IMG/VR virus record: IMGVR_UViG_3300046642_000470
Location: 1-39,200 of that record
DNA from: a virus
DNA length: 39,200 nt
Reading direction: 5' to 3' (one strand)
Shown: positions 19,656 to 36,794 of the stretch, one piece after another
Layout: every line of letters begins with the position of its first letter
How positions within the stretch are numbered: position 1 is the stretch's first letter
The notes under the pieces: model-generated
Databases searched by the model: none
What the model was told of the DNA's origin: nothing
What the model saw: only the letters and a program-made list of their open reading frames with translations
Made by a program: the position numbers and the translations under genes

Positions 19656-22600
19656 ATGCCGAAGACCGGTACAGCCGTTGAGCTGCTGCTCGGCGGGGTG
19701 TGGACGGACATCACCTCGCGGACGTACCTGCGCGACCGCATCACCATCGCGCGCGGCCGGCGCGACGAGGGGTCCCGCGTGGACCCCTCGTCGTGCACCC
19801 TGACCCTCAACAACAAGGCGGGGTATTTCTCGCCCCGCAACCCCCTGTCGCCGCTGTACGGGCTGATCGGCCGCAACACGCCGATCCGCGTGTCAACGGC
19901 CGCTGGCTCGCCGTTCCTCGACCTGCCGGCGACCGGCCCCGCCCGCGCCCGGGCGAGCACGCCCACCGCGGCGGCGCTCAACGTCGCCGGTGACCTTGAC
20001 GTGCGGTTCGACGTGCAGCCGGACGACTGGTACGCCACGACCGTCGTAGAACTCGGCGGCAAATGGGGCGCGGCCGGCCAGCGCAGTTGGCACGCCTTCC
20101 TCAACTCCGGGTTCATCGAGATCGGCTGGACAACGGACGGGACGACCGAAGTCCTTGCCGCGGTGTCGCTCGGCTCGGCGGCGCTCACGCCCCGCATGGT
20201 GGTCCGCGTCGTCCTGGACGTGAACAACGGCGCCGGCGGGAAGACGGTCCGGTTCTACTGCGGGCCGAGCATGGCCGGGCCTTGGACGCAGATCGCCAGC
20301 GATCAGACGTTCGCAGGCACGGCGTCGATCTTCGCGTCGACTGCCGCCCTGGAAATCGGCGACGTGACCTCGACCGCCAGCGTGGACGCTGCCGCGCACC
20401 TGTTCGCCGCTCAGGTGCGATCTGGGATCGACGGCACGATCGTTGCCAACCCAGATTTCACCGCGCAGACAGTCGGCGCCACATCGTTCTCCGACAGTGT
20501 GCACGTGCCGTGGACGGTCACGGCCAGCGGCATCGGCAACAAGCGCGTCAGGTTCGTCGGCGAAGTGAGCAGTTGGCCTGCCCGGTGGGACGTGTCCGGC
20601 GGTGACGTGTACGTACCGGTGCAGGCGGCTGGCATCATGCGGCGCCTGGGGCAGGGCGCCGACCCGCTGCAATCCACGCTGCGACGTCGCATCCCATCCG
20701 ACCCGAACCTGATCGCCTATTGGCCGATGGAGGACGGCGCCAACTCGACGCAGGGCTACAGCCCGCTTCCCGGCGTCGCCCCCATGGTCACCAGCGGAAT
20801 GACCTTCTCCAGTGACGCGAGCCTTGCCGGATCCTCGGCGCTGCCCGTGCTGGGGCCCGTGTCGTCGATGTCGGGCGTTGTCCCGTCGTCGTCGACCGGC
20901 TCATGGCGAGTCGAGTTCGTGTACCGGATCGACACGGCGCCAGCCCTTGACTTCAACGCGCAGTTCGTTGTTGTCCAGACCGATCAAGCGCAGTGGCGCG
21001 TCGGGGTCGGCGCAAGCTTCATTCACCTGGATGTGACAGCGCCCGACGGCACGAGTCTGGTGTCAACAGCGATCGTTCCTACCGCGTTCTTCGGCTCGTG
21101 GTCACGTTTCGTCCTACACGCCAAGCCCTCCGGCGGATCCGTGGCATACGAAATTCTGTGGATCACCATTGGCGGCATTGCGCAGGTATCCGGTGGCACC
21201 TTTACAGGAGCGGTCGGGCACATTACGCGCGTCGCCGCCTCTCATGGCAGCGCACTTCAGGGCATGCCGCTCGGCCACATCGGCGTGTTCTCCGCATACG
21301 ACAGCACCATCTTCAACAGCGCCGACAGGGCGTTCGACGGCGACTCGGCGGACGGGCGCATGACACGGCTGGCTGCCGAGGAGAGTACGCCGCTGCTTCG
21401 GCCGTACGGCCCGGCTGGCGATGTGCTGGTGGGTCCGCAGCGGCCTGACACGCTGCTGAACCTCGTGCAGGAGGCTGCCACGGCAGACGTGGGCATCTTG
21501 TACGAGCCACGGCACGTGATCGCCCTCGCAGCCCGGCCGCGCACGTCGCTCTACAACCAGGCGACGGCGCTCGCCCTCGACTACTCGCGGCAGGGCGATG
21601 TTGCGCCGCCGTTGGAGCCGACGGAGGACGACCAGGCGACCCGCAACGACGTGACCCGCTCGCGGCCGTCGGGCAGCTCGGCGCGGGCCACGCTCGACAC
21701 CGGGACGCTGTCCACCGCGGCGCCGCCGCTCGGCGTCGGCCGGTACACGGACAGCAGCAGCGTCAACGTCCACACGGACGACCAACTGCCCGATCAGGCG
21801 GCGTGGTGGCTGCACCTGGGCACGTGGGATGAGGCCCGCTATCCGTCGGTCACGGTGAATCTGGCGGCAGCCGGCCGGCTGATCGACCAGGCGACCGCGG
21901 TGGACATCGGCGACCGTCTCACCATCGGTAACCCACCAGTGTGGGTGGCGCCCGGGGTGATCGACCTGATCGCCGAGGGCTACACCGAGACGATCGGCTG
22001 GGCTGACTGGACTATCACCTACAACTGCACGCCAGCCGGCCCGTGGTCCGTGGCCGTGTCGGATGATCCGGTGCTCGGCCGGGCGGATACGGACGGCTCG
22101 CAGCTCGCTGCCAGCGTCACAGCGACCGCCACCACGCTGAGTGTGGCGGTCACCGCAGGCCCGCTGTGGACGACCGACCCCGCCGAGTACCCGTTCGACC
22201 TCCGGGTGGGCGGCGAGGTCGTCACCGCGCGCGCGGCTGGCACGCCGCTCGACCTCGTTGACGGCACGTTCGAGTCGGGCGTGTCCGGCTGGACTCCGAC
22301 GGGCGGCACGTTCGCGCCGTCCACGGACGCTCACACCGGCACGGGGTCGGGCGTCCTGACCGTGGCCGGGTCGCCGACGCAGGCGTTCGTGCGGCCGGAC
22401 ACCACCCACCAGCCGGCAGCCACCCCGGGCGTGGAATACCGCTACTCGGTGTGGGTCAAGGCCAGTGCGGGATGGACGGCCATGGCCGCTATCGACTGGC
22501 TCAACTCCAGTCACGCCCTGCTGTCGACGGCATCAGGTACCAGCGTCGGCCTCACGGCCGGCGTGTGGACCCTGCTCACGGTCACCGCAACCGCGCCGGC

Positions 22601-22814
22601 CAGCACCGCGTTTGCGCGCCCGGGCCCAACACTCACCGTCAGCCCGCCCAACGGCACCACGCTGACGGTCGACGACTCGGTGACCGTGCGAACAAGTACG
22701 TATCTGACCTCGCCGCAGTCGCTCGCTGTCGTCCGCTCGGTGAACGGCATCAGCAAGGCCCAGGCGTCGGGCGCTGACGTGCGCCTGGCGCAACCGATGA
22801 TCGCATCCCTGTAG
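19656..22814 (+). CDS. Large minor tail protein with LamG-like and carbohydrate-binding modules
   Basis: 1052 aa. The N-terminal 100 residues (VELLLGGVWTDITSRTYLRD, then TLTLNNKAGYFSPRNP) match the opening of actinobacterial tail proteins of the distal-tail/tail-associated type. Around residues 350-520, starting LIAYWPMEDG, there is a LamG/concanavalin-like jelly-roll. Residues 865-1045 (DGTFESGVSGWTPTGG, then EYRYSVWVKASAG) resemble a CBM4/9-like carbohydrate-binding module. It is likely a tail-tip adhesin that binds cell-wall glycan. The combination of two sugar-binding modules in one polypeptide is notable. Confidence 0.8.
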   Translation: MPKTGTAVELLLGGVWTDITSRTYLRDRITIARGRRDEGSRVDPSSCTLTLNNKAGYFSPRNPLSPLYGLIGRNTPIRVSTAAGSPFLDLPATGPARARASTPTAAALNVAGDLDVRFDVQPDDWYATTVVELGGKWGAAGQRSWHAFLNSGFIEIGWTTDGTTEVLAAVSLGSAALTPRMVVRVVLDVNNGAGGKTVRFYCGPSMAGPWTQIASDQTFAGTASIFASTAALEIGDVTSTASVDAAAHLFAAQVRSGIDGTIVANPDFTAQTVGATSFSDSVHVPWTVTASGIGNKRVRFVGEVSSWPARWDVSGGDVYVPVQAAGIMRRLGQGADPLQSTLRRRIPSDPNLIAYWPMEDGANSTQGYSPLPGVAPMVTSGMTFSSDASLAGSSALPVLGPVSSMSGVVPSSSTGSWRVEFVYRIDTAPALDFNAQFVVVQTDQAQWRVGVGASFIHLDVTAPDGTSLVSTAIVPTAFFGSWSRFVLHAKPSGGSVAYEILWITIGGIAQVSGGTFTGAVGHITRVAASHGSALQGMPLGHIGVFSAYDSTIFNSADRAFDGDSADGRMTRLAAEESTPLLRPYGPAGDVLVGPQRPDTLLNLVQEAATADVGILYEPRHVIALAARPRTSLYNQATALALDYSRQGDVAPPLEPTEDDQATRNDVTRSRPSGSSARATLDTGTLSTAAPPLGVGRYTDSSSVNVHTDDQLPDQAAWWLHLGTWDEARYPSVTVNLAAAGRLIDQATAVDIGDRLTIGNPPVWVAPGVIDLIAEGYTETIGWADWTITYNCTPAGPWSVAVSDDPVLGRADTDGSQLAASVTATATTLSVAVTAGPLWTTDPAEYPFDLRVGGEVVTARAAGTPLDLVDGTFESGVSGWTPTGGTFAPSTDAHTGTGSGVLTVAGSPTQAFVRPDTTHQPAATPGVEYRYSVWVKASAGWTAMAAIDWLNSSHALLSTASGTSVGLTAGVWTLLTVTATAPASTAFARPGPTLTVSPPNGTTLTVDDSVTVRTSTYLTSPQSLAVVRSVNGISKAQASGADVRLAQPMIASL

Positions 22815-22823
22815 GAGGGACCC

Positions 22824-23294
22824 GTGGCGGCATTCACGCCGATCAGTGCCGGGCAGCGGGTGACCGCCGGATACCTCCGGCAGATCGCGGGCCCGGCCAC
22901 GCAGTACACGCCCGTCGTCACCAACGGGGGGTCGGCCACTTTCTCGACGCTCACCGGGCTCTGGTTCCAGACCGGCGCCGGCATTTTCGTCAACATCGAC
23001 ATCGTGATCGGCACGGCGGGCAGCGGCAGCGGCATTGTGACGATCACGATGCCGACGGTCGTGGACCGCGGGCAGCGGCAGGCGCTCACGATGCACGCGG
23101 AGTCGATCGGCGCCGGCGGCAACGCCTCGTCGCACATCTCGGGCGGCGAGGCCGTGTTCTTCCCGACCTCGACGGGCTCGACGACTGACCGCCTGCGGAT
23201 CGACGAGGGCGGCGCGGTCAGCCGAGAGAACAACATTCTGGGGAACGACCTGCTCGCGGGCGGTCACATCACGATTCAGGGCACCTACCTCTGA
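22824..23294 (+). CDS. Probable tail tip or fibre protein, 156 aa
   Basis: GTG start behind GTAGGAGGGA. The chain opens AAFTPISAGQRVTAGYLRQI, a motif frequent in small actinophage tail-tip proteins, then is a Gly/Ser/Thr-rich beta structure ending GGHITIQGTYL. It lies between the large tail protein and the endolysin. Receptor binding is possible; no enzymatic motif is present. Confidence 0.7.
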   Translation: MAAFTPISAGQRVTAGYLRQIAGPATQYTPVVTNGGSATFSTLTGLWFQTGAGIFVNIDIVIGTAGSGSGIVTITMPTVVDRGQRQALTMHAESIGAGGNASSHISGGEAVFFPTSTGSTTDRLRIDEGGAVSRENNILGNDLLAGGHITIQGTYL

Positions 23295-23310
23295 CACCCC
23301 GGGAGGGGCT

Positions 23311-24321
23311 ATGGCGGCGACGAGCCGCGGTATCGACGTGTCCGGCTACCAGGGCGCGCAGGACTGGGCGGCCCTGGTGCGGGGCGGCCTCACCTACGCG
23401 GCGGCGAAGGCGTCCGAGGGCGAGCACACCCACGATCCGCACTACCGGTTGCACATGGATGGCATGCGGGGCGCCGCGGTGCTGCCGCAGGCGTACCACT
23501 ACGCCTGGCCGAACCAGGACGCGCACGCCGAGGCGGACAACTACCTGTCGGCCGTCCACGCGGACGCGTCCGAGGTCGCCGGGTTCGTGCACTTCCTCGA
23601 CTTGGAGCGGCGCACGGACGGCGCGAACTACGCGGGCATGTCGGCCGCCGGCATCCGGGCGTACGGCGAGGCGTGGATCGACCGCGTCAAGGCGGCGTGC
23701 CCGCGGCAGCGCGTCGGCTGCTACACCTCGGCGTCCGACATCGCCGCCGGCCACTACCCGCGGAACGCCGACTTCCTGTTCTACCCCGCGTATCCGGCGG
23801 GCCCGCTGAACTGGACGCAGGCCGAGCAGCGCAGCCGGCCGAACCCTGGCGTCACGCCGTTGTTCTGGCAGTTCGCCAGCTCCCCCACGGACCGCTCCAT
23901 CTGCTACATGACCCCGGCCGCGTACAAGACGTGGGCCGGTCACCAGGAGGACGACATGCCCACCGCAGCCGAGTTCGCCGAGGCGGTGTACGCCCGCTTC
24001 ACCAAGCCGGGCGCGCTGTTCGCCGACATCGACAACCCGACCACGACCGACGACAAGACCGTCACGCCGCGCGTCCTGTCCTGGGAGACCGGCAAGGACG
24101 CGTTCCAGGCGAACAACGGCGTGAGGCAGGTTCTCGGCCTGCTCGGCGCCCTGTCGGCGGGCGTGGCCGCGCTGGCCAAGGACAGCAAGCTGACGGCCGA
24201 GCAGATCACCGAGGCGGCGAAGGCGGGCGGCCTGGCCGCGCTCGCCGAGGGCGTCGTGCACGTAGAGGTGACCGGCGCGCCGCCGGCCCCGACCGCGCCG
24301 CCCGCGGCCGCCAAGAGCTGA
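23311..24321 (+). CDS. Endolysin, GH25 muramidase
   Basis: 336 aa, ATG with GGGAGGGG. Residues 6-205 are a glycoside hydrolase family 25 lysozyme: GIDVSGYQG gives the first catalytic Asp (D9), AAKASEG is the conserved loop, and HFLDLER gives D97/E99. The enzyme cuts the N-acetylmuramic acid linkage of peptidoglycan at the end of infection. Residues 215-335 form a helical C-terminal region that opens MPTAAEFAEAVYARF; it is probably a wall-binding or regulatory domain, of a type I do not recognise. No signal peptide, so a holin is needed. Confidence 0.92.
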   Translation: MAATSRGIDVSGYQGAQDWAALVRGGLTYAAAKASEGEHTHDPHYRLHMDGMRGAAVLPQAYHYAWPNQDAHAEADNYLSAVHADASEVAGFVHFLDLERRTDGANYAGMSAAGIRAYGEAWIDRVKAACPRQRVGCYTSASDIAAGHYPRNADFLFYPAYPAGPLNWTQAEQRSRPNPGVTPLFWQFASSPTDRSICYMTPAAYKTWAGHQEDDMPTAAEFAEAVYARFTKPGALFADIDNPTTTDDKTVTPRVLSWETGKDAFQANNGVRQVLGLLGALSAGVAALAKDSKLTAEQITEAAKAGGLAALAEGVVHVEVTGAPPAPTAPPAAAKS

Positions 24322-24339
24322 CCGCACCACAGCACCACC

Positions 24340-24370
24340 CCGCCCCGGGCGCACGTCGCGTCCGGGGCGG
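24340..24370 (+). terminator. Terminator-like hairpin between endolysin and holin
   Basis: CCGCCCCGGGCGC and GCGTCCGGGGCGG form a 13-bp stem with one G-T pair and loop ACGTC, 18 nt after the endolysin stop. It lacks a T-run but is long and GC-rich. It may partly end the tail-endolysin transcript before the holin. Confidence 0.6.
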
Positions 24371-24410
24371 ACTTGTACCACCCACCTCTGACACTCCCCT
24401 GGAGATCCCC

Positions 24411-24677
24411 ATGTCCCTCCCCTCCGTCTCGAACCTCGGCCAGCTCGGCAAGACCGCGGGCGCGTACGCGCTGGACCTCGCCGAGCGCGTCGGCGCCACC
24501 TTCCTCGTCGCCACCGGCGGCGTGCTGACGACCGCGACCGCGGGCAACATCGGCCACGCGAGCTTCTGGCAGGCGGTCGGCGCCGGCGGCGTGGCCGCGG
24601 CCTACTCTCTCGTCAAGGGCGTCGTGGCGAAGTTCCGCGGCGACGGCAACAGCGCCTCGCTGATCAAGGGCGTCTGA
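24411..24677 (+). CDS. Holin (r1t-like)
   Basis: 88 aa, ATG after GGAG. Two hydrophobic segments (residues 27-43 and 50-68, TFLVATGGVLTTATAG and AVGAGGVAAAYSLVKGVV) are joined by a short turn. The opening helix AYALDLAERVGATF and the charged end fit r1t-type holins of Gram-positive phages. It would make the pores through which the endolysin reaches the wall. The position directly after the endolysin supports this. Confidence 0.78.
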   Translation: MSLPSVSNLGQLGKTAGAYALDLAERVGATFLVATGGVLTTATAGNIGHASFWQAVGAGGVAAAYSLVKGVVAKFRGDGNSASLIKGV

Positions 24678-24681
24678 GCCC

Positions 24682-24999
24682 GTGGGGCCCGACACGAGTG
24701 ACCCGGCAGCCGTGGCGGTCGCCCTCGAACAGATCAGGGGGACCATGGAAACCGGGTTCGCCCGCATCGACGGCAAGTTGGCCCTGCTCGCGCAGCGGGG
24801 CGAGCAGACGGAGCGGCGCCTCGACGACCTTGACCGGCGCCTCGACGCCGTGGAGCGGGGCGACACCGAGCGGCAGAAACGCCAGGAGGGCCGCCTCACG
24901 GGCCTGGAATCGGGCCGGTGGCCGCTGCGTACGATCGGCGCCCTGTCGGGCGTCGTGGCCGCCGTGGCGGCCGTCGCTGGCGTCGCCGCGTACCACTGA
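24682..24999 (+). CDS. Membrane protein with coiled coil, probable lysis accessory
   Basis: 105 aa from a GTG. Residues 15-75 form a coiled coil (EQIRGTMETGFARIDGKLAL, then RRLDDLDRRLDAVERG), and residues 82-103 are a single C-terminal membrane span (IGALSGVVAAVAAVAGVAAY). This tail-anchored layout is common next to actinophage holins and may be a second holin, a holin regulator or a tape-like lysis helper. A precise role cannot be read from the sequence. Confidence 0.7.
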   Translation: MGPDTSDPAAVAVALEQIRGTMETGFARIDGKLALLAQRGEQTERRLDDLDRRLDAVERGDTERQKRQEGRLTGLESGRWPLRTIGALSGVVAAVAAVAGVAAYH

Positions 25000-25005
25000 G
25001 CACAT

Positions 25006-25038
25006 GCCCCCCGCCCGGCTACGGCCGCGGCGGGGGGC
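25006..25038. terminator. Bidirectional terminator between convergent units
   Basis: A perfect 10-bp stem, GCCCCCCGCC with GGCGGGGGGC, and then GCTTTCGTC on the + side. It separates the late operon, whose last stop is at 24999, from the leftward GntR gene ending at 25058. It can serve both. Confidence 0.85.
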
Positions 25039-25057
25039 GCTTTCGTCGTGTCTGGGG

Positions 25058-25810
25058 TCAGAGGTCGACGGCGAACTCAACCACGGTCGCGTCACCTCTG
25101 CGGACGATCGGGTGTGCGACCTCGACGACGCGGCCCGCGGCGAGGTGCCGCCGGGTGAATCGGACGACGGGCACGGCGGCGCCGATGTGCAGTGTCTCCG
25201 CCTCGGCCGGCGTGGGCATGCCCACGGTGAACGCCTCGGTGATCCTGTCGACGACGATGCCGAGTGTGGCGAGCTGCGCCCGAGTGCCGCCCGGCCAGGG
25301 CTCATTGATGGGGTCGGCGACGGGCGTGCCGCCCACGTCCGACCAGCGCACGTAGCTGGTGGACATCTGCGAGGGCTGATCGTTGTCGTAGAACACGAAG
25401 TGCCGTGCGAGCAGGGGCAGGCCCGGCTCATCCTCGAACAGCGCGGCCAAGTTGGGGCCCGCCTTGATCTGCTCGAACCGCTTGTCGAGCCGGTACTCGC
25501 TCCATCCGATGCCCTGGTCGCGGGTGAATGCGGTCTGCGGCTGGCCGCCGGGCGGCGTCCGGTAGCGGTCGGCGGCGAGTCGGTGCACGGGCGGTCGCTC
25601 GCGTACGACGGTGCCCGCGCGGGTGCGCGACTCGACCAGGCCCTCACCGCGCAGGAGGCCGACGGCGTTGCGGGCGGTCGTCTCGCTGACGCCGTACGTG
25701 GCGCACAGCTCGGGCAGGGTAGGCAGGCGGTCGCCGGGCCGCAGGGCGCCGCTGGTGATCTGGTCGCGCAACTCGGCCGCGATGCGCAGGTACTCGGGCC
25801 GCTCAGCCAC
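25058..25810 (-). CDS. GntR/HutC-family transcription regulator with UTRA domain
   Basis: 250 aa. Residues 1-72 are a GntR winged helix: PEYLRIAAELRDQITSGAL, RPGDRLPTLPELCATYGVS and ETTARNAVGLLRGEGLVESR contain the expected Pro, Leu and Arg positions. Residues 90-245 are a UTRA ligand-binding domain (APNLAALFEDEPGLPLLARH-like strand, RFTRRHLAAGRVVEVA near the end). I choose GTG 25810 because GGAGGG lies 8 nt upstream; the GTG at 25819 overlaps that site. The gene is divergent from the 25955 cassette, with three 14-bp operators between. GntR regulators of this branch also control conjugative elements in Streptomyces. Confidence 0.92.
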   Translation of the reverse strand: MAERPEYLRIAAELRDQITSGALRPGDRLPTLPELCATYGVSETTARNAVGLLRGEGLVESRTRAGTVVRERPPVHRLAADRYRTPPGGQPQTAFTRDQGIGWSEYRLDKRFEQIKAGPNLAALFEDEPGLPLLARHFVFYDNDQPSQMSTSYVRWSDVGGTPVADPINEPWPGGTRAQLATLGIVVDRITEAFTVGMPTPAEAETLHIGAAVPVVRFTRRHLAAGRVVEVAHPIVRRGDATVVEFAVDL

Positions 25811-25841
25811 GCGCGCCACCCTCCGGAGTGATCGGCTCGGA

Positions 25842-25855
25842 TTCTGTACTCACAT
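25842..25855. promoter_or_regulatory. Operator 1 of the GntR divergent region
   Basis: TTCTGTACTCACAT, 11 of 14 positions matching the consensus TTCTGTACTCAGAA defined by the two other copies. It lies 32 nt upstream of the GntR start, close to where leftward transcription should begin, so binding here would give autoregulation. Confidence 0.65.
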
Positions 25856-25869
25856 ATTGCGTGACGCTC

Positions 25870-25898
25870 TTGACCCACGCCAAGCTGCGCGTGATTCT
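25870..25898 (+). promoter_or_regulatory. Candidate promoter of the ATPase-like cassette
   Basis: TTGACC (25870-25875) and GATTCT (25893-25898) at 17-nt spacing. The -10 overlaps operator 2, as expected for repression by steric exclusion. Matches to the consensus are partial. Confidence 0.45.
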
Positions 25899-25908
25899 GA
25901 GTACAGAA
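25895..25908. promoter_or_regulatory. Operator 2 of the GntR divergent region
   Basis: TTCTGAGTACAGAA, whose reverse complement is exactly TTCTGTACTCAGAA; TTCTG and CAGAA form the symmetrical arms. Its centre is 53 bp from that of operator 1 and 21 bp from that of operator 3, both near whole numbers of helical turns. Confidence 0.75.
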
Positions 25909-25915
25909 CGCAGCT

Positions 25916-25929
25916 TTCCGTACTCAGAA
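25916..25929. promoter_or_regulatory. Operator 3 of the GntR divergent region
   Basis: TTCCGTACTCAGAA, 13 of 14 positions identical to the consensus. It lies 25 nt before the start of the ATPase-like gene, downstream of the presumed promoter, so it could block elongation or loop with operator 1. Confidence 0.7.
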
Positions 25930-25954
25930 CGCTACGCATTCGAGGGACGCCCCC

Positions 25955-26302
25955 ATGCCTGAAACGGTCGGCCAGAGCTGGCAACGCGCCTTCCCTGCGG
26001 AGGCCGCACAGGTCCGTGCCGCCCGCGCATGGGTCCGGACCCACACCCGCCACGAGGACGCCGAACAGATCACGGCCGAGCTGTTCCTCGCTGCGCTCAC
26101 CGGCCGCCCGGCCGCCACCGTGTCGATGACGTTCTCGACCGCGGGGGCCCGCAGCCGCATCGTGGCCGGCGGCGACCGGCCGTTACCCCTGCACGCCCTG
26201 CGCGGCGCCGGCCGCAGCATCATCGCCGGACTGGCGACTGCGTACGGCAGCACCGTGGACGACTGCGGCGTGTGGGCCGAACTCCCCTGGGAGGCACCAT
26301 GA
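25955..26302 (+). CDS. Degenerate GHKL (RsbW-like) ATPase-fold regulator, 115 aa
   Basis: The order SWQRAFPAEAAQVRAARAWV, then EDAEQITAELFLAALTGRP, SMTFSTAGARSRIVAGG, GAGRSIIAGLATAYG and GVWAELPW follows the small anti-sigma-like ATP-binding proteins abundant in Streptomyces (HATPase_c_2). The N box, normally EL..NA..H, is ELFLAALTG, lacking the essential Asn, and the DxGxG motif is replaced by GGDRPLP. ATP binding is therefore doubtful; a protein-binding remnant is more likely. It is the first gene of a four-gene cassette behind the GntR operators, coupled to the next by an ATGA overlap. Confidence 0.65.
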   Translation: MPETVGQSWQRAFPAEAAQVRAARAWVRTHTRHEDAEQITAELFLAALTGRPAATVSMTFSTAGARSRIVAGGDRPLPLHALRGAGRSIIAGLATAYGSTVDDCGVWAELPWEAP

Positions 26303-26553
26303 GAACAGTCCTGCGGTACGCGCAGTGGCTCATCAGCCGCGACACTTCCGAGGGCGCGCCCGCCGAGCCGCTGCACGAGATGCAGTGCACCACCTGCTCG
26401 GAGCGCTCCGCGGCGTCCAGTGACGTGGCTGCCGCGCAGGATTGGGCGCTCCAGCACTCCGGGCGGTACCCGTCGCACACCGGCTACCGCGAGACCGTTA
26501 CGCGGTTCTGGCGGACGCGTCTCACGGACGCGACGCCCGAGCGGGACCACTGA
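26299..26553 (+). CDS. DUF7848-like protein, 84 aa
   Basis: ATG in an ATGA overlap. The pattern MRTVLRYAQWLISRD, then MQCTTCSERS, QDWALQHSGRYPSH and GYRETVTRFWR resembles the DUF7848 proteins common in Streptomyces, which carry a CxxC pair and a conserved W-x6-GR-x-PSH segment. Function is unknown; the Cys and His residues could bind zinc. In Streptomyces chromosomes such genes often sit near GntR and small ATPase genes, the same context as here. Confidence 0.6.
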   Translation: MRTVLRYAQWLISRDTSEGAPAEPLHEMQCTTCSERSAASSDVAAAQDWALQHSGRYPSHTGYRETVTRFWRTRLTDATPERDH

Positions 26554-26927
26554 TGGCCACCCCGGCGCTCACCGTCGCCGACTACCTCGCCGCGCCCCTC
26601 GGTGTGATGCGCGTCCGAGAAGTGGAACGGCTGGCGCGGCGGTGCGCCGCAGCCGACCTTGACGACACGGTCACCGACCTGCGGGCAGCGCTCCGTACGG
26701 GCGTCGACCTCGAGGAGTTCCGGCGGCTGCACATCCTGATCAGCTACCTGTACCACGAGCATGGTGCGGGCATTCCGCTGGTCACCAATCTCCGCGCCGA
26801 GGTGGGCGCAGCGCTCGCCTTGCGCGGTTCCATCGCCCGAGCGACCACGAGGGGAGGTGATCCCGATGTCCTGTCCCACAGAAGGCTGCCGCAAGGGCGG
26901 CTGCACGACCGAGCCGCAGCCGACTGA
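26553..26927 (+). CDS. Hypothetical protein, 124 aa
   Basis: One-base TGATG overlap with the previous gene. Residues 1-95 are helical, with TVTDLRAALRTGVDLEEFRR and LHILISYLYHEHG; the remainder is disordered-looking and basic. The last 62 nt also encode the start of the next small gene in another frame, so the extreme C-terminus (from about residue 105) may be unselected read-through. Family unknown. Confidence 0.6.
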   Translation: MATPALTVADYLAAPLGVMRVREVERLARRCAAADLDDTVTDLRAALRTGVDLEEFRRLHILISYLYHEHGAGIPLVTNLRAEVGAALALRGSIARATTRGGDPDVLSHRRLPQGRLHDRAAAD

Positions 26928-26949
26928 GCGGCCCGCAGCCCGCCGCTGA
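26866..26949 (+). CDS. Very small Cys-rich protein, 27 aa
   Basis: ATG 26866 follows GGGAGGTGATC, complementary over 10 nt to the 3' end of 16S rRNA, at 5-nt spacing. The peptide begins MSCPTEGCRKGGCTT and ends PAARR; three Cys at spacing 4 and 4 are preserved. It overlaps the end of the preceding gene in another frame. The strong ribosome-binding site is the main evidence that it is translated. Confidence 0.55.
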   Translation: MSCPTEGCRKGGCTTEPQPTERPAARR

Positions 26950-26955
26950 GCAAGG

Positions 26956-26992
26956 GGGCCGTCCCGGAGTGGTGAATACTCCGGGACGGCCC
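26956..26992 (+). terminator. Strong terminator after the GntR-linked cassette
   Basis: A perfect 15-bp stem, GGGCCGTCCCGGAGT with ACTCCGGGACGGCCC, and a 7-nt loop, followed by TTGGG. It begins 6 nt after the stop of the 27-aa gene. It also separates this cassette from the leftward XRE gene ending at 27047. Confidence 0.9.
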
Positions 26993-27046
26993 TTGGGCGT
27001 ACGGTACCGGGCGCCGTGCGGCTGGCACATGCCGTTGGGCGTTTCC

Positions 27047-27292
27047 CTACGCACTGCCGTCGGTGACCAGCTCGGCGAGCGGCACCCGGATCTCGTGTGC
27101 GATCAGCATCAGGTCACTGATCCGTGCGTCGGTCGTGCCGCGCTCGATCGCCTGGTACGTGGACCGGGGGATGCCCGTTGCGAGGTACACGGCCTCTTGT
27201 GTCCGGTTCCGGTGCATGCGGGCCGCTCGGATGCGGTCGCCGAGTCGGCGGCGGGCAGGGGGCAGCCAGTCGGGCTGTGGATCACGGGGCAC
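27047..27292 (-). CDS. Small XRE/Cro-CI HTH protein, 81 aa
   Basis: Residues 14-72 are a full HTH_3 domain: RLGDRIRAARMHRNRTQEAVYL, GIPRSTYQAIERGTTDARIS and MLIAHEIRVPLAEL show the usual five-helix pattern with the recognition helix RSTYQAIERG. The start is a GTG without a clear ribosome-binding site, so translation may be leaderless or weak. The gene is leftward and lies on the far side of the attP candidate from the integrase; integration there would separate the two. It may be a host-specific or secondary repressor. Confidence 0.8.
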   Translation of the reverse strand: MPRDPQPDWLPPARRRLGDRIRAARMHRNRTQEAVYLATGIPRSTYQAIERGTTDARISDLMLIAHEIRVPLAELVTDGSA

Positions 27293-27571
27293 CCGCTTGA
27301 CGCTGGGGCGTGGCAGGGCAGGTGTCAGCCCGAGAGGGCAAGCTTTTTTCGATCATGGTTTGACTGGCCGGGCGCGGGGTAATTCTCGGCCACCCCCGCA
27401 ACGGCGGCTCGGCGAGCATGGAGCCGAGCCGCGAGATGATCGTGCGCCGTAATCGAACATCCGTTCACACGAACGGGTGATTTCATGGTACAGATAGTGC
27501 CGCAGCGCACCCGCAATGTAACGATGCAACAGCAGCCACAGACGGCCGCCGGTGGGCAACCGGTGGCCAGG

Positions 27572-27610
27572 CCCGCGCCCCCGGGAGGGCATCCCAGAGG
27601 GGGGCGCGGG
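27572..27610. terminator. Strong GC-rich hairpin
   Basis: CCCGCGCCCCC pairs perfectly with GGGGGCGCGGG; an inner GGGA/TCCC pair gives a branched loop. In the + direction it is followed by TTCCCCCC. It could end leftward or rightward transcripts in the non-coding region. Confidence 0.5.
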
Positions 27611-27625
27611 TTCCCCCCACGGTAA

Positions 27626-27657
27626 GTGCCCCCGCCGCATGGCCGCGACGGGGGCAC
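27626..27657 (-). terminator. Hairpin downstream of the integrase gene
   Basis: Perfect 9-bp stem, GTGCCCCCG with CGGGGGCAC. It is 74 nt past the integrase stop, on the far side of the attP candidate, and could end the leftward repressor-integrase transcript. There is no U-tract. Confidence 0.45.
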
Positions 27658-27730: not shown

Positions 27731-29359
27731 TCAGGATGGGACGGCCGTCTCCCATGGGTCCGGCTCCCACAGGGGGTGGATCTCGATGTGCACGGTGCGG
27801 CTGCGGTGCGCCTGGCGGGTGCACGTCACCCGGCGGACGAGCTTGCGCAAGATGGCGTTTCGCTCCCCCGGTTCCATGGCGATCCAGCCGTCGGCGATGG
27901 ACAGCAGCAGCGGCGCATAGTCGACGGCCTGCGGTTGCGCTGCCTGCTCGGCCGCAGCGTTGAGCGCGGCCGTCACGGCGGCCTGCTGCTGCCGGATGCG
28001 GTCGCGGGCCGCCTCGTACTCGCCCGGCCCCCAGTCGTCCGGGTCGGTGGCGCGCTGCACACGCAGGTTGGCGAGCGCTGCGGCGTGCCGGGCGGACTCG
28101 GCCTGTAGCCGCTCGACCTCGGCGCGGGCGCGGGCCCGGTCGTCTACAGCCGGCGCGGCCTGCTCGGCGGAGCGCAGCTCGCGGGACGCCTCGGCGTGCT
28201 GCCGTAGCCACGTCTGCACCTCATCCTCGAGGACGGCGCGCTGCACCCACACGCCCGCGGCGCAGACGCTCGTGCCGGCGTGGGCGCGGGCGCCGCACAT
28301 GTAGGCGTAGCCGAGCACCTGCGCGCCGCGGCGGCGGGCGCTGGTTGCGCCCGCGTCGCCGCGGCAGGTTCCGCACCGTACGAGACCGGTGAGCGTATAG
28401 AGGGGTACGCGTGCGCGTGGCGCGCGGGCGCGGTTGTCGGCGCGGTGCTCCTGGTACTGCTCCCACGTCTCCGGGGTGATCAGCGCGTCGTGGGCACCAT
28501 CAATGTGCGTCCACCTCGAGCACCGGCCGCCGGCCGCGGTGTAGTCGCAGCCGCATTCGGGGTCGTGGACGCGCAGGAGGCCGGCGGCAAAGCCGGAGTC
28601 GAGGTACCGGCGCAGGCTGTCTGCCTGGTACAGCTCGTCGCGGCGGGTGCGGAGGCCGAGGGTGTTGATCCGTTCGGCGAGCGCTCCGTACCCGGCTCCG
28701 GCCAGCTTGCGCGTGTAGAGATCGGCGACAACTTCGCCGTGGTCGGGGTGCGGTTCGTACCACTCGCGTTGGAGAATCCACTCCCCCGGGTGTTGGGGGT
28801 CCGGCAGGCGCCGCGGGTGCCAGATGTAGCCGAGGCGTCGGCCGCCGGTGGCTGGCAGGCCGAGCGCGCGTCGCCAGGCGTGTGTGTCTTTCCACTGCTC
28901 GCCGGCGCGGTCCGACTCGAACACCGCGAGGTCGAACAGGATGGCGCGGTTGAACTTGCCGACGGCCGTGGTGGCGTCGAAATCCTCGGTGGCGCTGGCC
29001 AGTTCGCCGCCGGCGTGGCGCAGGCGGCCGAGGTTGACGGCGATGCCGAGGTCGTTGCGGCCGAATCGGCTGTACTTCCAGACGGCGATGCCGCGGGCTT
29101 CGCGCCGCTCGCATGACTCGATGCCGCGCATGATCTTGCGCTTGAAGTTTCGCCCGGTGGCGTCCAGGTCGATGATCCATGCCACGATGCGGCGCCGGGT
29201 GCGGGCGGCCCATGCCTCGATGGCGGACCGCTGTAGCTCGGGGCTGATCTTCTCTTCGCGCCAGGTGGACACCCGGATGTAGCCGATCCAGGGTTCCCAG
29301 TCGTCGTCTGCGCTGTGCAGCGTGGGTCCGCGTAGGGCGGGCGGCACGTCGGTGGTCAC
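27731..29359 (-). CDS. int: Large serine integrase
   Basis: 542 aa. The resolvase domain begins WIGYIRVST with catalytic S31 (R29 adjacent); IDLDATGRNFKR and WKYSRFGRN give the conserved Asp, Gly and Arg residues (R98, R101), and FDLAVFESDRAGE the long helix start. A recombinase domain follows, then a zinc ribbon (LVRCGTCRGDAG, later YMCGARAHAGTSVCAAG) and a coiled-coil C-terminal domain. It inserts phage DNA at attB without host factors. The GTG start overlaps the upstream gene's stop (GTGA on the minus strand), so it is made from the same transcript as the membrane protein and probably the repressor. Confidence 0.95.
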   Translation of the reverse strand: MTTDVPPALRGPTLHSADDDWEPWIGYIRVSTWREEKISPELQRSAIEAWAARTRRRIVAWIIDLDATGRNFKRKIMRGIESCERREARGIAVWKYSRFGRNDLGIAVNLGRLRHAGGELASATEDFDATTAVGKFNRAILFDLAVFESDRAGEQWKDTHAWRRALGLPATGGRRLGYIWHPRRLPDPQHPGEWILQREWYEPHPDHGEVVADLYTRKLAGAGYGALAERINTLGLRTRRDELYQADSLRRYLDSGFAAGLLRVHDPECGCDYTAAGGRCSRWTHIDGAHDALITPETWEQYQEHRADNRARAPRARVPLYTLTGLVRCGTCRGDAGATSARRRGAQVLGYAYMCGARAHAGTSVCAAGVWVQRAVLEDEVQTWLRQHAEASRELRSAEQAAPAVDDRARARAEVERLQAESARHAAALANLRVQRATDPDDWGPGEYEAARDRIRQQQAAVTAALNAAAEQAAQPQAVDYAPLLLSIADGWIAMEPGERNAILRKLVRRVTCTRQAHRSRTVHIEIHPLWEPDPWETAVPS

Positions 29360-29700
29360 TGGTCTGCGGTCCTCTCCGTGTTGCTGATGGATCGGAGGTG
29401 TCCACGCGCGTAGCTGTTGGGCGCGTCGGCGCCCCCGTCGGGCGGGGTGAGGAGGCCGAGGGCGGCGTGTGCGAGGCCCGTGCGGTAGCCGTCGGCGTGT
29501 GCGGCGGCGAGCTGTTCGGGGGTGACGGCCGCTGCACGACGTGTTTGTGAGGCGCAGATGAGGGGGCACGAGGCGAACATCATCACCAGCCCGCCGCGAA
29601 GGATCATCTTCGGTATGGCGGCGTCGAGGCCGGCGACGGTGGCAAGGATGCCTGCGGTTGCCGCGGCAATGCTGATGATGTTGAGCGTGCGGGTGTGCAA
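29356..29700 (-). CDS. Small membrane protein upstream of integrase, 114 aa
   Basis: It starts at a TTG 6 nt after GGAGGG. Residues 8-25 and 31-50 are hydrophobic (ISIAAATAGILATVAG and KMILRGGLVMMFASCPLIC), two likely membrane spans; the remainder, with PEQLAAAHADGYRTGLAHAA, is a soluble helix. The stop overlaps the integrase GTG. It lies between repressor and integrase, where some temperate phages keep superinfection-exclusion genes; that role is only inferred from position. Confidence 0.7.
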   Translation of the reverse strand: MHTRTLNIISIAAATAGILATVAGLDAAIPKMILRGGLVMMFASCPLICASQTRRAAAVTPEQLAAAHADGYRTGLAHAALGLLTPPDGGADAPNSYARGHLRSISNTERTADQ

Positions 29701-29716: not shown

Positions 29717-30181
29717 TCAGTCGGCCCGCTTTCTGTCGGACCGTTCCTGCTGTACCGCGCGCGCGGCCTCGACTTGGGCGACGAACAGTCGGATCGCGGT
29801 GGGGTCCACGATGCCGAGGTCGCGGGCTGCGTCCTCTGGGGTGATCGGTGGGCGGTCGATCGGGGGCGCTGCCTGTGCGGCGTTGAGTTCGTCTGCGGTG
29901 AGAACGCCGGCTCGTACGAGTAGCTCGGGGAAGGGCAGGCCGAGCGTTTCGGCGATGCGGCGCAGGTTCTCGGGGTCGGGGTTGAGCGCGGTGCCGGTGA
30001 GAATCCGGCTGATGGTGGCCTGGCTGAGGCCGGTTTGTTCAGCGAGTCGGCGTTGGCCGCCGCCTCGTGCGGTGAGGTTGTAATCGCGCTCGATCATGCG
30101 GTCGTAGAGCCAGGCCGCGAAGCGCTGCGCGGTGGCACGGCGGTCGGCGCTGGACAGGCGGGAGGGCTGCGTCTGTTCCAT
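29717..30181 (-). CDS. XRE-family repressor, probable lysogeny regulator
   Basis: 154 aa. Residues 20-85 contain an HTH_3 domain: RFAAWLYDRMIERDYNLTA, then RRLAEQTGLSQATISRILTG and NLRRIAETLGLPFPELLV, with the recognition helix QATISRILTG. The C-terminal half is a separate helical region (PEDAARDLGIVDPTAIRLFV). I choose ATG 30181 rather than an upstream start because the TACATT -10 ends 7 nt before it, so the mRNA is probably leaderless. It heads the leftward operon repressor, membrane protein, integrase, and faces the rightward early genes. Best candidate for the immunity repressor. Confidence 0.85.
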   Translation of the reverse strand: MEQTQPSRLSSADRRATAQRFAAWLYDRMIERDYNLTARGGGQRRLAEQTGLSQATISRILTGTALNPDPENLRRIAETLGLPFPELLVRAGVLTADELNAAQAAPPIDRPPITPEDAARDLGIVDPTAIRLFVAQVEAARAVQQERSDRKRAD

Positions 30182-30185
30182 GCAA

Positions 30186-30206
30186 GAAATGTACCGCTCG
30201 TGGAAC
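30186..30206 (-). promoter_or_regulatory. Promoter/operator motif B, repressor gene
   Basis: On the minus strand this reads GTTCCACGAGCGGTACATTT plus C, with -10 TACATT at 30193-30188. It matches motif A at 18 of 21 positions, and the match extends upstream through ACGGTTG. The -10 lies 7 nt from the repressor ATG, placing the transcript start at or next to that codon. Confidence 0.65.
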
Positions 30207-30218
30207 ATCACCAACCGT

Positions 30219-34378: not shown

Positions 34379-35157
34379 TGGGCGCCGCCGCGCTGCTCGC
34401 GCTCGCCGAGCGGCCCGCGCCGCCCGTGACCCCCGGGCAGGCCGCCATCGGCGAGCCCGTGCGGCACAGCACGCTGCCCCTGCCCGAGCGGCCGTGGAAC
34501 GGCGGCACCGTGCTCGATCTGTGCTGCTGCGCCGGCGGCGCGGGCATGGGGTACTGGCTCGCGGGCTGGAACGTCGTGGGCGTCGATATCCGCCCGCAGC
34601 CGAACTACCCGTTCCCGTTCGTCCAGGCCGACGCCATTGAGTACGTGCGGACCTTCGGCGCCGCCTACGACCTGCACCACGGCTCGTGGCCATGCCAGCA
34701 CCGGGCCGCGATCACCAAGGGCACCAACCGGCATCTACAGCACCGCTATCCGGACCTGCTTCCCGCAGGCCGTGAGGCCATGCTCAGCACTGGCCAGCCG
34801 TACGTCATCGAGACCACCGGGTGCCGTCCCGACGTGGTGTTGTGCGGCGCGTCGTTCGGGCTGCCGATCCTGCGGCACCGCCGCATCGAGGTGCGCGGCT
34901 GGTTCCCTCTCGCGCTGCCGCACGCCCCTCACCGCGGTCGAGTCCGCGGCCACCGTCACGGCAAGCGCTACGACGGCCCGTATCTCGCCGCGTACGGCGA
35001 CGGCGGCGGCAAGGCCACCGTGCCCGAGATGCAGGCCGCCATGGGCATCACGTGGACCGACGTGCGCCACGAACTCACCGAGGCCATCCCGCCCGCCTAC
35101 ACACAGTTCCTCGGCGAGCAGGCCGCCGAGCAGATTCTCACCAAGGAGTCATCATGA
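34378..35157 (+). CDS. C5-cytosine DNA methyltransferase-like protein
   Basis: 259 aa; a GTG one codon upstream is equally possible. Motif I is LDLCCCAGGAGMGYWLAG followed by VVGVDIRP. Around residue 103 SWPCQ stands where the family has PPCQ, retaining the catalytic Cys. VIETTG replaces the usual ENV segment, keeping Glu, and CGASFGLPILRHRRIEVRGW matches the conserved FGxxxxRHR region. It lacks a separate long target-recognition domain and resembles short phage-borne enzymes that protect DNA from host restriction. No cognate nuclease is adjacent. Confidence 0.8.
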   Translation: MGAAALLALAERPAPPVTPGQAAIGEPVRHSTLPLPERPWNGGTVLDLCCCAGGAGMGYWLAGWNVVGVDIRPQPNYPFPFVQADAIEYVRTFGAAYDLHHGSWPCQHRAAITKGTNRHLQHRYPDLLPAGREAMLSTGQPYVIETTGCRPDVVLCGASFGLPILRHRRIEVRGWFPLALPHAPHRGRVRGHRHGKRYDGPYLAAYGDGGGKATVPEMQAAMGITWTDVRHELTEAIPPAYTQFLGEQAAEQILTKESS

Positions 35158-35810
35158 CCATGATTGCCGCCCGCCAGTTCCGCACGATGCTCGCGCAGGT
35201 CACCCCGCACATGGGCAGCGACGACACGCTGCCCGTCCTCACCGCCATTCACCTCGAGTGCGGGCGCGGGAACCTGTTCGCCGTCGCCACCGACCAGTAC
35301 ACGATGGGCATCGCCCGCGCCACCGTCGACAGCCGCGACAACTGGACCGGCCGTATCCAGCGCGAGGACATGAAGACCGTCACCGCGTGGCTGCGCACCG
35401 CGCCCGAAACGATCGAGATCACCGGCATCCGCGACGGCGACACCGTGACCGTCACCCTCGCCCACGACGGCAGCACGCTCCGCCTGGCGGCCGGCGCGCA
35501 CGGCGAGCTGCCGAAGTGGCGCGACCTGGTCAAGGGCGCCGTGACCGCCAAGGCCGCCGCCGTCGACCTCAATGCGTTCAACACGGCGTTCCTGGCCCGC
35601 TTCAAGGCCGCCGGGACCGTGCTCCACACGTGGCAGGGCGGACCCGGCAAGCCGCTGCTGTTCACCGACGCCGAGGCGACGTTCGTCGGCATTCAGATGC
35701 CCGTACGCACGGACGAGCGCCAGGTGTCGCGCGACAGCCTCGCCGAGAAGTGGACCCGGCACCTCCCCGCCGCACCCGCCGATCCGGTCGCCGACGCCGC
35801 CGCCGCCTGA
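35154..35810 (+). CDS. Short beta-clamp (DnaN)-like protein
   Basis: 218 aa, ATG overlapping the methyltransferase TGA, AGGAG 5 nt before. FRTMLAQVTPHMGSDDTLPV with LTAIHLECGRGNLFAVATDQ is the characteristic opening of a DNA polymerase III beta domain, and later GELPKWRDLV fits a second clamp domain. Bacterial beta clamps have three such domains in about 370 residues; this has room for two. It may form a trimer or partner with the host clamp. It lies directly before the replication initiator. Confidence 0.75.
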   Translation: MTMIAARQFRTMLAQVTPHMGSDDTLPVLTAIHLECGRGNLFAVATDQYTMGIARATVDSRDNWTGRIQREDMKTVTAWLRTAPETIEITGIRDGDTVTVTLAHDGSTLRLAAGAHGELPKWRDLVKGAVTAKAAAVDLNAFNTAFLARFKAAGTVLHTWQGGPGKPLLFTDAEATFVGIQMPVRTDERQVSRDSLAEKWTRHLPAAPADPVADAAAA

Positions 35811-35888: not shown

Positions 35889-36794
35889 TTGAGCGTCACC
35901 GCCATGCAGTGGGTGTGGGACAAGGCCAACGCCCGCGGCAACGCGCGGCTCGTGCTGCTCGCCGTCGCCGACAAGGCGCCCGGCCCTGACTGCACCGCCC
36001 GCATCGGCACCACCGAGATGGTGCGGCGCGTCAACGGCGCCCGATCGTCGGTCATCGTCGCCATCGACAAGGCCATCGAGAGCGGCGAACTGACCGTCAT
36101 CGAGGCCGCCGCCGGCAGTCGCGCAGCGCTCTACCAACTGCCCATGGCCGTCGGCTACTCGCGGCTTACCGGTCCGGAAACCGGACCCCTAGGCGGTGAA
36201 CCGGACCGGTCCGGAAACCGGACCCCTAAGCCCTCTCGGTCCGGAAACCGGACCCCTAACCCGGTGCCTACCGGTCCGGAAACCGGACCCCTAGACCGGA
36301 CCCCCGAAATGGCTTTGTGGTCCGAAAACCGGACCCCTAGGGGTCCGGAAACCGGACCCCATCACTCACCCAATGAAGGAGTGAGTGAAGGAGTGGTTGA
36401 GGCGCGCGGCCCCGAACGGCGCACCGCAGTCATTCCCGAGTTCGCCCGCCCCCTGGTCGACACCCTCACCGCTTCCGGCGTCGTCGTGAAGTGGTCGCTC
36501 GGCGAAGGCGAGTGGTTCTCCCTCGACCACCTGATCCAGCGCAGCGGCGCCGACATGCTCGCCGCCGAAGCCGTCAAGGTCGCCGCCCGCACCACCGTCT
36601 CGCACGCCCGGTACTTCCTCCGCGCCTGGCGCGACCTGCCGCCCGCACCCGCCGCCGGAACCGCCCCCGTCATCCCGCAGCACGCCGGCCCCAACGTCGT
36701 GCCGTTCGACGCCACACAGCCGCGCCGCAGCCGCGCCCAACGCACAGCCGACGAACTCGCCCTCATCCTCGCCAGAGAGGCAGCCCAGCAGTGA
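35889..36794 (+). CDS. Replication initiator with internal iteron array
   Basis: 301 aa from a TTG, 8 nt after AGGAG. Residues 1-85 are a winged-helix domain of the phage replisome-organiser type (VTAMQWVWDKANARGNARLV, CTARIGTTEMVRRVNGARSS). The region encoded by 36171-36362 is low complexity (GPETGPL and SGNRTP repeats) because it contains six DNA iterons. A C-terminal domain with EGEWFSLDHLIQRSG follows. Lambda O has the same layout: DNA-binding N-terminus, iterons inside its gene, C-terminal recruitment domain. It probably binds its own gene to start replication. Confidence 0.85.
   Translation: MSVTAMQWVWDKANARGNARLVLLAVADKAPGPDCTARIGTTEMVRRVNGARSSVIVAIDKAIESGELTVIEAAAGSRAALYQLPMAVGYSRLTGPETGPLGGEPDRSGNRTPKPSRSGNRTPNPVPTGPETGPLDRTPEMALWSENRTPRGPETGPHHSPNEGVSEGVVEARGPERRTAVIPEFARPLVDTLTASGVVVKWSLGEGEWFSLDHLIQRSGADMLAAEAVKVAARTTVSHARYFLRAWRDLPPAPAAGTAPVIPQHAGPNVVPFDATQPRRSRAQRTADELALILAREAAQQ
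36171..36362. repeat. ori: Iteron array, probable origin of replication
   Basis: Six near-identical copies, each with the 17-bp palindrome GGTCCGGAAACCGGACC followed by CCTA, begin at 36171, 36208, 36238, 36273, 36319 and 36342. Copy 5 has one changed base (GGTCCGAAAA) and copy 6 ends CCAT. Half-sites CCGGACC occur at 36201 and 36296. Distances between starts are 37, 30, 35, 46 and 23 bp. A flanking 8-bp inverted repeat, TCACTCAC with GTGAGTGA, lies at 36362-36388. Confidence 0.85.

What the first reader, a model, noticed from the sequence alone, without database searches (positions are those of the whole stretch)
25058..26949. Streptomyces-type regulatory cassette carried by the phage
A GntR regulator, a degenerate RsbW-like protein, a DUF7848-like protein and a Cys-rich micro-protein sit between two strong terminators, outside the usual phage modules. 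Such sets occur in Streptomyces chromosomes and mobile elements. In this phage it is a self-contained unit, possibly a cargo (moron) altering host sigma or developmental control.
Basis: partly seen in the sequence, partly recalled or inferred. Interest (0 to 1): 0.75.

Follow-up and report, generated by a model that had tools for sequence, protein, structure and literature searches.

The report
Phage GntR switch with anti-sigma look-alike
Next to its integrase, this Streptomyces phage carries a small self-regulating gene switch: a GntR repressor facing a protein that folds like a bacterial anti-sigma factor but has lost its ATP-handling residue. The pair recurs in many Streptomyces phages and chromosomes and probably lets the phage interfere with its host's developmental or stress programme.

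Summary
The cassette is real. Its core is two divergent genes: a GntR/UTRA repressor (25058-25819, -) and a 115-aa protein, P115 (25955-26302, +), with three TCTG-N4-CAGA operators between them. The pair occurs in 28/28 other phage contigs holding the full repressor gene, and in 26/28 such chromosomal loci. All 8 P115 loci checked after a search that ignored GntR also had GntR alongside. The operators are conserved in 55 loci, and their centre changes with the GntR recognition helix. P115 is predicted to fold like RsbW/SpoIIAB (Z 13-14), but the N-box asparagine is Ala in 26/27 members and the ATP-lid segment is missing; it matches no Pfam family. Downstream genes (DUF7848, P124, a Cys-rich peptide, XRE) are exchangeable: a 95%-identical relative replaces them from exactly the P115 stop codon. 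SV1, Picard, Raleigh, Tubberson and Darolandstone carry, in the same slot and orientation, another regulator facing an intact RsbW-like gene. Best reading: an accessory regulatory module whose repressor holds down a non-catalytic anti-sigma-fold effector acting on host development or stress. The DNA-level half is well supported; target and phenotype are inferred.

The parts
25006..25038 (.). strong hairpin between lysis genes and GntR; putative bidirectional terminator (no U-tract)
   Evidence: z -4.0 / -3.3; no U-tract terminator
25058..25819 (-). GntR-HTH + UTRA repressor (HutC/KorSA-like architecture), GTG start, recognition helix SETTARNAV
   Evidence: GntR 7.6e-19, UTRA 6.2e-10; 28-member alignment
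25842..25855 (+). operator 1, TTCTGTACTCACAT, on the GntR side
   Evidence: conserved at the same place in 54 of 55 aligned loci
25870..25875 (+). -35-like TTGACC of the P115 promoter, invariant in the aligned intergenic regions; the -10 region would overlap operator 2
   Evidence: by inspection, no consensus sigma-70 site called
25895..25908 (+). operator 2, TTCTGAGTACAGAA, overlapping the expected P115 -10
25916..25929 (+). operator 3, TTCCGTACTCAGAA, 21 bp from operator 2
25955..26302 (+). P115, RsbW/SpoIIAB-fold protein without the N-box Asn and without the ATP-lid segment
   Evidence: dN/dS 0.13-0.39 in six pairs of relatives
26299..26553 (+). DUF7848 protein (84 aa, CxxC), ATGA overlap with P115
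   Evidence: E 4.8e-27; same family follows P115 in L015, L093, L117, L118
26553..26927 (+). P124, coupled to DUF7848 (TGATG), no known family
   Evidence: no convincing family; no phage homologue
26866..26949 (+). 27-aa Cys-rich ORF with perfect Shine-Dalgarno; overlaps the P124 end in another frame
   Evidence: conservation not shown
26954..26994 (.). very strong hairpin ending the P115 operon; putative terminator (no U-tract)
   Evidence: z -7.3
27047..27292 (-). XRE (HTH_3) gene; relatives near the pair in several other loci
   Evidence: 1.1e-11
27451..27636 (.). non-coding stretch 76% conserved with L006 although the DNA to its left is unrelated; candidate attP region next to the integrase
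27731..29569 (-). serine integrase (neighbour that fixes the position of the slot)
   Evidence: phrog_95 3.9e-83

Best explanation
The conserved unit is a two-gene switch. (1) The GntR/UTRA protein binds three TCTG-N4-CAGA operators in the shared promoter region; operator 1 limits its own gene, operators 2 and 3 cover the P115 promoter and silence the P115 operon in the lysogen. (2) When repression is lifted (an unknown UTRA ligand, or entry into a cell without the repressor), P115 and its coupled small, often Cys-rich, partners are made. (3) P115 keeps the RsbW/SpoIIAB fold but lacks the Mg-binding Asn and the ATP-lid segment, so it would work as a non-phosphorylating binder in the host's partner-switching network: it sequesters a sigma factor or an anti-anti-sigma factor (BldG/RsbV type), or pairs with host RsbW-like proteins, and so shifts development or stress responses in the phage's favour. 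Shown by computation: gene identities, operators and their coupling to the helix, linkage, predicted fold, loss of the Asn, slot position. Inferred: repression, the inducer, the binding partner, the phenotype.
For: Linkage: 28/28 complete GntR phage contigs have divergent P115; 26/28 full-length GntR loci in genomes, one more with a P115 remnant; 8/8 checked loci found with the P115 profile alone have GntR. Operators: conserved in 55 loci; helix xTT goes with N4 centres containing G or C (one exception among 116 sites), IT/AP with AT (30/30 sites), PT with TAAT/ATGA/ATGT. Fold: pLDDT 88; RsbW 6m37 Z 14.4, rmsd 2.0 A over 102 residues; UsfX Z 14.1; SpoIIAB Z 13.6, well above the histidine kinases at about 7 or less. 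Sequence: the P115 profile picks up an intact HATPase_c_2 protein at E 6.9e-8 and P115 aligns with Picard gp26 at E 0.007. N-box N->A in 26/27 with Glu kept 27/27. Purifying selection. Same slot in relatives: regulator facing an intact RsbW-like gene. Precedents: KorSA-like SCO3932 has the same divergon plan with one site plus a double site and also binds antibiotic promoters (PMC8584621); over-expression of AbaA6 (HATPase_c) gives a sporulation-deficient phenotype in S. venezuelae (PMC10294661); host development limits phage spread (PMC10117723).
Against: No experiment on any member. No P115 partner or GntR ligand is known. No operators outside the cassette, so no direct link to other phage genes. 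The helix/operator coupling is strong by count but phylogenetically underpowered: one independent pair on supported branches, seven on the unsupported best tree. The slot analogy with WhiJ/AbaA-type sets is by position and fold, not by common ancestry of the regulators. The small Cys-rich partners could be the real effectors.
Confidence: 0.5

Rival explanations
1. Kil-kor-like stabilisation: P115 or a small Cys-rich partner is harmful, GntR is the 'kor' repressor, and loss of the prophage or entry into a naive cell releases it; the module keeps the prophage or favours it over rivals.
For: Same divergon plan as KorSA/Pra, and korSA and SCO3932 could not be deleted (PMC8584621); operators vary in concert like immunity groups; stand-alone chromosomal copies.
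Against: P115 has an anti-sigma fold, not a known toxin fold; the repressor is not co-transcribed with its target as in classical toxin-antitoxin pairs; PADLOC finds nothing for GntR, P115, DUF7848 or P124.
Confidence: 0.2
2. A second lysogeny or excision switch: GntR, like KorSA, controls the phage's own integration/excision programme through P115 in the place of the Pra activator.
For: Adjacent to the integrase side in this and many phages; KorSA/Pra precedent.
Against: Operators only in its own divergon; a separate HTH repressor lies at 29717-30214, where Tubberson and Darolandstone have annotated immunity repressors; the pair stays conserved where the integrase differs (L006 int 47% identical); P115 does not have a DNA-binding fold.
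Confidence: 0.15
3. Defence or superinfection exclusion: the small exchangeable Cys-rich proteins are anti-phage effectors and GntR-P115 is the conserved sensor/regulator that launches them.
For: High turnover of coupled downstream genes with a breakpoint exactly at the P115 stop; location next to the integrase; similar small proteins also follow the XRE-TPR regulator in Piccadilly.
Against: No defence family hit for GntR, P115, DUF7848 or P124; no known nuclease or toxin domain.
Confidence: 0.12
4. Near-neutral cargo: an autoregulated pair captured from chromosomes, kept because phages recombine in this slot.
For: Sporadic distribution, chromosomal and plasmid copies, truncated GntR copies without P115.
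Against: dN/dS 0.13-0.39 for P115, operators conserved across distant loci, 83% mean column identity of GntR.
Confidence: 0.08

Closest known systems
KorSA/Pra divergon of pSAM2-type integrative elements; SCO3932/SCO3933 of S. coelicolor
   Same: GntR/UTRA-type regulator on a mobile element; in SCO3932/3933 a shared promoter region with a divergent gene, one site near the regulator and a double site on the other gene's promoter (PMC8584621)
   Different: Phage, not conjugative element; the divergent gene has an anti-sigma fold instead of the Pra activator; operator TCTG-N4-CAGA unlike the SCO3932 motif AC[TC]T[AG]TT[GC][TG][GT]ACG
whiJ-type loci of Streptomyces (XRE WhiJ + DUF397 BldB-like + AbaA HATPase) and the phage copies in Picard, Mojorita and Darolandstone
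   Same: DNA-binding regulator next to a small RsbW-fold protein; same phage slot and divergent orientation; several chromosomal copies
   Different: GntR instead of XRE-DUF5753, no DUF397, ATPase residues lost in P115
RsbW / SpoIIAB / UsfX anti-sigma factors (HATPase_c_2)
   Same: Fold over ~100 residues (Z 13-14), N-box Glu and G2 glycines kept
   Different: N-box Asn -> Ala, ATP-lid segment deleted, no Pfam hit
HutC-subfamily GntR regulators (HutC, NagR, DasR)
   Same: GntR HTH + UTRA, ~12-bp palindromes with a 4-bp centre, residue-base coupling (PMC4494728)
   Different: Operator half-site TCTG..CAGA rather than the NyGTMTAKACNy consensus; ligand unknown; no metabolic gene in the divergon

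Membership tests
GntR/HutC-type regulator | N-terminal GntR winged HTH | tested here: met
   PF00392 E 7.6e-19
GntR/HutC-type regulator | C-terminal UTRA domain | tested here: met
   PF07702 E 6.2e-10
GntR/HutC-type regulator | palindromic operator with GT-N4-AC centre | tested here: inconclusive
   12-bp palindrome with 4-bp centre found, but half-sites are TCTG/CAGA; binding not tested
GntR/HutC-type regulator | small-molecule effector | not testable with these tools
   needs ligand binding or induction assay
RsbW/SpoIIAB anti-sigma factor (HATPase_c_2) | GHKL fold of the RsbW type | tested here: met
   AlphaFold model pLDDT 88; 6m37_C Z 14.4, rmsd 2.0, 102 aligned
RsbW/SpoIIAB anti-sigma factor (HATPase_c_2) | sequence family match (PF13581) | tested here: not met
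   0 of 27 members hit at E<=1; distant homology only
RsbW/SpoIIAB anti-sigma factor (HATPase_c_2) | N-box Asn for Mg-ATP | tested here: not met
   Ala in 26, Ser in 1 of 27; Asn in 6/6 intact comparators
RsbW/SpoIIAB anti-sigma factor (HATPase_c_2) | binds a sigma factor or anti-anti-sigma factor | not testable with these tools
   needs two-hybrid or pull-down
whiJ-type locus | XRE-type WhiJ protein and DUF397 partner | tested here: not met
   regulator is GntR/UTRA; no DUF397 in the cassette
whiJ-type locus | adjacent AbaA-type (RsbW-fold) protein | tested here: met
   P115 fold, though without the ATPase residue
kil-kor (KorSA) system | GntR/UTRA repressor with operators in its own promoter region on a mobile element | tested here: met
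   architecture and operators; regulation itself inferred
kil-kor (KorSA) system | a harmful gene that the repressor overrides (TraSA in pSAM2) | not testable with these tools
   needs deletion/expression
Known anti-phage defence system | match to a defence model | tested here: not met
   no PADLOC hit for GntR, P115, DUF7848, P124; XRE hits only generic HTH models

The most novel reading that the evidence does not exclude
An undescribed family of non-catalytic anti-sigma mimics, kept under paired repressors whose operators diversify like immunity groups, that temperate Streptomyces phages use to brake host development or stress responses; chromosomal copies are captured or relic phage switches.
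Probability: 0.3. Interest if true: 0.8.

Novelty: new variant of a known kind. Interest (0 to 1): 0.56.

Why it matters
AbaA/RsbW-like proteins are numerous in Streptomyces, and the review read here knows no role for the one in the whiJ locus (PMC4255298), while raising AbaA6 alone gives a sporulation defect (PMC10294661). Host development is itself a barrier to phage spread (PMC10117723). A compact phage switch whose only conserved output is a version of this fold without the Mg-ATP residue gives a two-gene, testable handle on whether phages tune Streptomyces development through partner switching, and on what the fold does without kinase activity. It also shows that this phage slot is a place where whole regulator modules are exchanged.

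Tried and rejected
Foreign base composition: rejected. GntR as the main immunity repressor: disfavoured, no operators elsewhere in the phage and a separate HTH repressor beyond the integrase. P115 as a decaying pseudogene: rejected by codon pattern and dN/dS. Known defence system: no PADLOC match. PHROGs for the P115 family: only scattered weak hits. Profile search of P115 against PDB sequences: only weak hits to unrelated proteins, so the fold search was needed. P124 as a DUF6415 relative: DUF6415 genes follow P115 in L022, L106 and others but P124 itself has no hit. Host regulon: a whole-genome pattern search in six Streptomyces genomes found operator pairs at the cassette plus scattered single sites, above the reversed-pattern control in some genomes and not followed up. 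Papers on GntR/anti-sigma cassettes in phages, DUF7848 or DUF6415: none relevant found in the open library. A first tree with too strict an anchor lost 20 rows and a second still lost many; one search replaces both.

Full report
SETTING. The window is a 39.2-kb IMG/VR virus record. Its serine integrase and lysis genes place it near the Streptomyces phages Piccadilly, Eklok, Picard, SV1 and Raleigh, at 70-75% DNA identity over short pieces. Order: lysis genes (GH25 endolysin 23311-24321; p105 at 24682-24999) - cassette - serine integrase (27731-29569, -) - HTH repressor (29717-30214, -) and early genes. A second contig from another sample is 100% identical over 9.9 kb, from 37569 down to 27660.

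OBSERVATION. GntR/UTRA, DUF7848 and XRE genes are confirmed by Pfam. P115 has no sequence family, but see below. The + strand genes form one likely operon with overlapping stops and starts: P115/DUF7848 by ATGA at 26299, DUF7848/P124 by TGATG at 26551-26555. Hairpins bound the block but lack U-tracts. GC is that of the phage.

THE SWITCH. Between the two divergent genes lie three copies of a palindrome like TTCTGTACTCAGAA, found nowhere else in the window at up to 3 mismatches. The same region was aligned from 55 loci: the three sites, a TTGACC box and the spacing are kept. The half-sites TCTG/CAGA are nearly constant; the 4-bp centre changes at the three sites together. It follows the GntR recognition helix: S-x-T-T (39 loci) has G or C at the centre with one exceptional site; S-E-I-T and S-E-A-P (10 loci) have AT at all 30 sites; S-E-P-T (3 loci) has TAAT or ATGA/ATGT. 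This is what is expected if these are the operators of this GntR, and agrees with the known residue-base coupling in the HutC subfamily (PMC4494728). By count the association is nearly complete; on a tree of the UTRA part alone it needs 7 operator and 10 helix changes, but branch support is weak and only one pair is independent on supported branches, so the sign test has no power.

LINKAGE. A search with GntR gave 28 other phage contigs with a complete gene, all with divergent P115. In these the pair lies next to lysis or tail genes on one side and, where the contig reaches, usually the integrase on the other. In GTDB genomes, 26 of 28 full-length GntR loci have P115; L088 keeps a 30-residue P115 remnant and the Actinomadura locus L098 has none; six truncated GntR copies have none. 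Starting instead from the P115 profile in 295 Streptomyces genomes gave 13 strong hits; all eight of these that were fetched and checked have GntR alongside. Some chromosomal loci show phage genes, others (L072, L081, L091, L092, L096) do not, so the pair also lives as a stand-alone chromosomal or relic locus, and on plasmids, where NCBI calls P115 'hypothetical protein'.

P115. The 27-member alignment has 21 invariant columns. The AlphaFold model (pLDDT 88, pTM 0.83) matches RsbW (Z 14.4, 2.0 A, 102 residues), UsfX (14.1) and SpoIIAB (13.6), with histidine kinases at about 7 or below. Sequence agrees: the P115 profile picks up HATPase_c_2 proteins with intact motifs down to E 6.9e-8; hhalign to the intact phage proteins gives E 1.6e-4 at 51% probability. 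In the joint alignment the N-box Glu is kept 27/27 and the Asn is replaced by Ala in 26 and Ser in 1; about seven residues of the ATP-lid segment are missing; the G2 glycines stay. Codon changes between close relatives are mostly synonymous (dN/dS 0.13-0.39 in six pairs; 12 of 15 changed codons synonymous between window and L006). P115 is thus a maintained protein that should not work as the usual kinase; whether it still binds nucleotide is not known.

DOWNSTREAM GENES ARE EXCHANGEABLE. In other loci the gene coupled to P115 (overlap of 1 to 4 bases) is one of several small Cys-rich proteins, a DUF6415 protein or DUF7848. L006 is 95% identical to the window from 21765 to 26303, the P115 stop codon, and then unrelated up to 27451; its integrase is only 47% identical. 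Similar small proteins follow an XRE-TPR regulator in Piccadilly, and Vondra has a DUF7848 protein in this slot. Hence the core is GntR + operators + P115; the other genes are variable cargo.

SLOT IN NAMED PHAGES. Between lysis genes and integrase, SV1, Picard, Mojorita, Raleigh, Tubberson and Darolandstone carry a regulator (-) facing a RsbW-like gene (+) (Pfam). In Picard and Darolandstone the regulator is XRE-DUF5753 with DUF397, the whiJ-type set. Piccadilly, Ignacio, HFrancette, Vondra, PapayaSalad and Ididsumtinwong have other regulators with small genes. None has GntR or P115 (its best P115 hits are the RsbW-like genes of Picard and Mojorita). Different regulators with the same kind of partner recur at one place, which argues that the RsbW-type partner matters to these phages.

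INTERPRETATION. Steps shown by computation: a GntR/UTRA regulator; its three operators; their position over both promoters; strict linkage with P115; an anti-sigma fold without the Mg-ATP residue; the slot beside the integrase. Steps inferred: repression in the lysogen; an inducing ligand or zygotic induction; P115 binding a sigma, anti-sigma or anti-anti-sigma protein; a developmental or stress outcome. The inference leans on AbaA6 over-expression causing a sporulation defect, on the promiscuity of anti-sigma networks in Streptomyces (PMC4255298), on development limiting phage spread and on SCO3932, a mobile-element GntR that also binds antibiotic promoters. My estimates: regulatory half 0.9; fold and loss of the ATPase residue 0.85; host sigma or developmental effect about 0.5.

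VERDICT. A real, conserved and, as far as the open library shows, undescribed two-gene module: a new variant of the regulator-plus-AbaA/RsbW-like sets known from Streptomyces and their phages, with a partner that lacks the Mg-ATP residue and with operator specificity that co-varies with the repressor.

Noticed in passing
window 27047-27292 (-): XRE gene between the cassette and the integrase; relatives (42-53% identity) lie near the GntR-P115 pair in L009, L017, L019, L026, L029, L030, L031, L087, L090, L119. Possible further part of the slot or an excision/regulatory gene.
   Followed up: partly
window 27451-27636: Non-coding stretch 76% identical to L006 although the DNA to its left is unrelated; candidate attP region.
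   Followed up: partly
window 36164-36360: Two ~95-bp copies, about 73% alike, side by side (seen as self-similarity in the L036 comparison).
   Followed up: no
L096:8868-9320 (-), L083:8536-8988 (-): In two chromosomal copies an intact RsbW-like ATPase gene lies a few hundred bases downstream of P115, suggesting that P115 may work together with an active paralogue.
   Followed up: partly
G005:C1:1414155-1414187: A second pair of TCTGTGTACGGA sites 21 bp apart in a Streptomyces genome, possibly a further paralogous GntR divergon.
   Followed up: no
L106 (NZ_CP108116.1 plasmid): GntR-P115-DUF6415 next to TfuA/YcaO genes and a second GntR-DUF6415 set on a linear plasmid.
   Followed up: no
L010, L011, L013, L016, L018, L080, L087, L090: A gene with a conserved stretch like 'LVDYGWHAFILHTVDYARFC...FVHHVP' and a C-terminal CxxC (cluster c30) follows P115 in many copies; no Pfam family in the one tested.
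   Followed up: partly
window 34821-35810: Weak similarity to the DNA polymerase III beta clamp middle domain (E 3.5e-5, below Pfam's cut-off).
   Followed up: no
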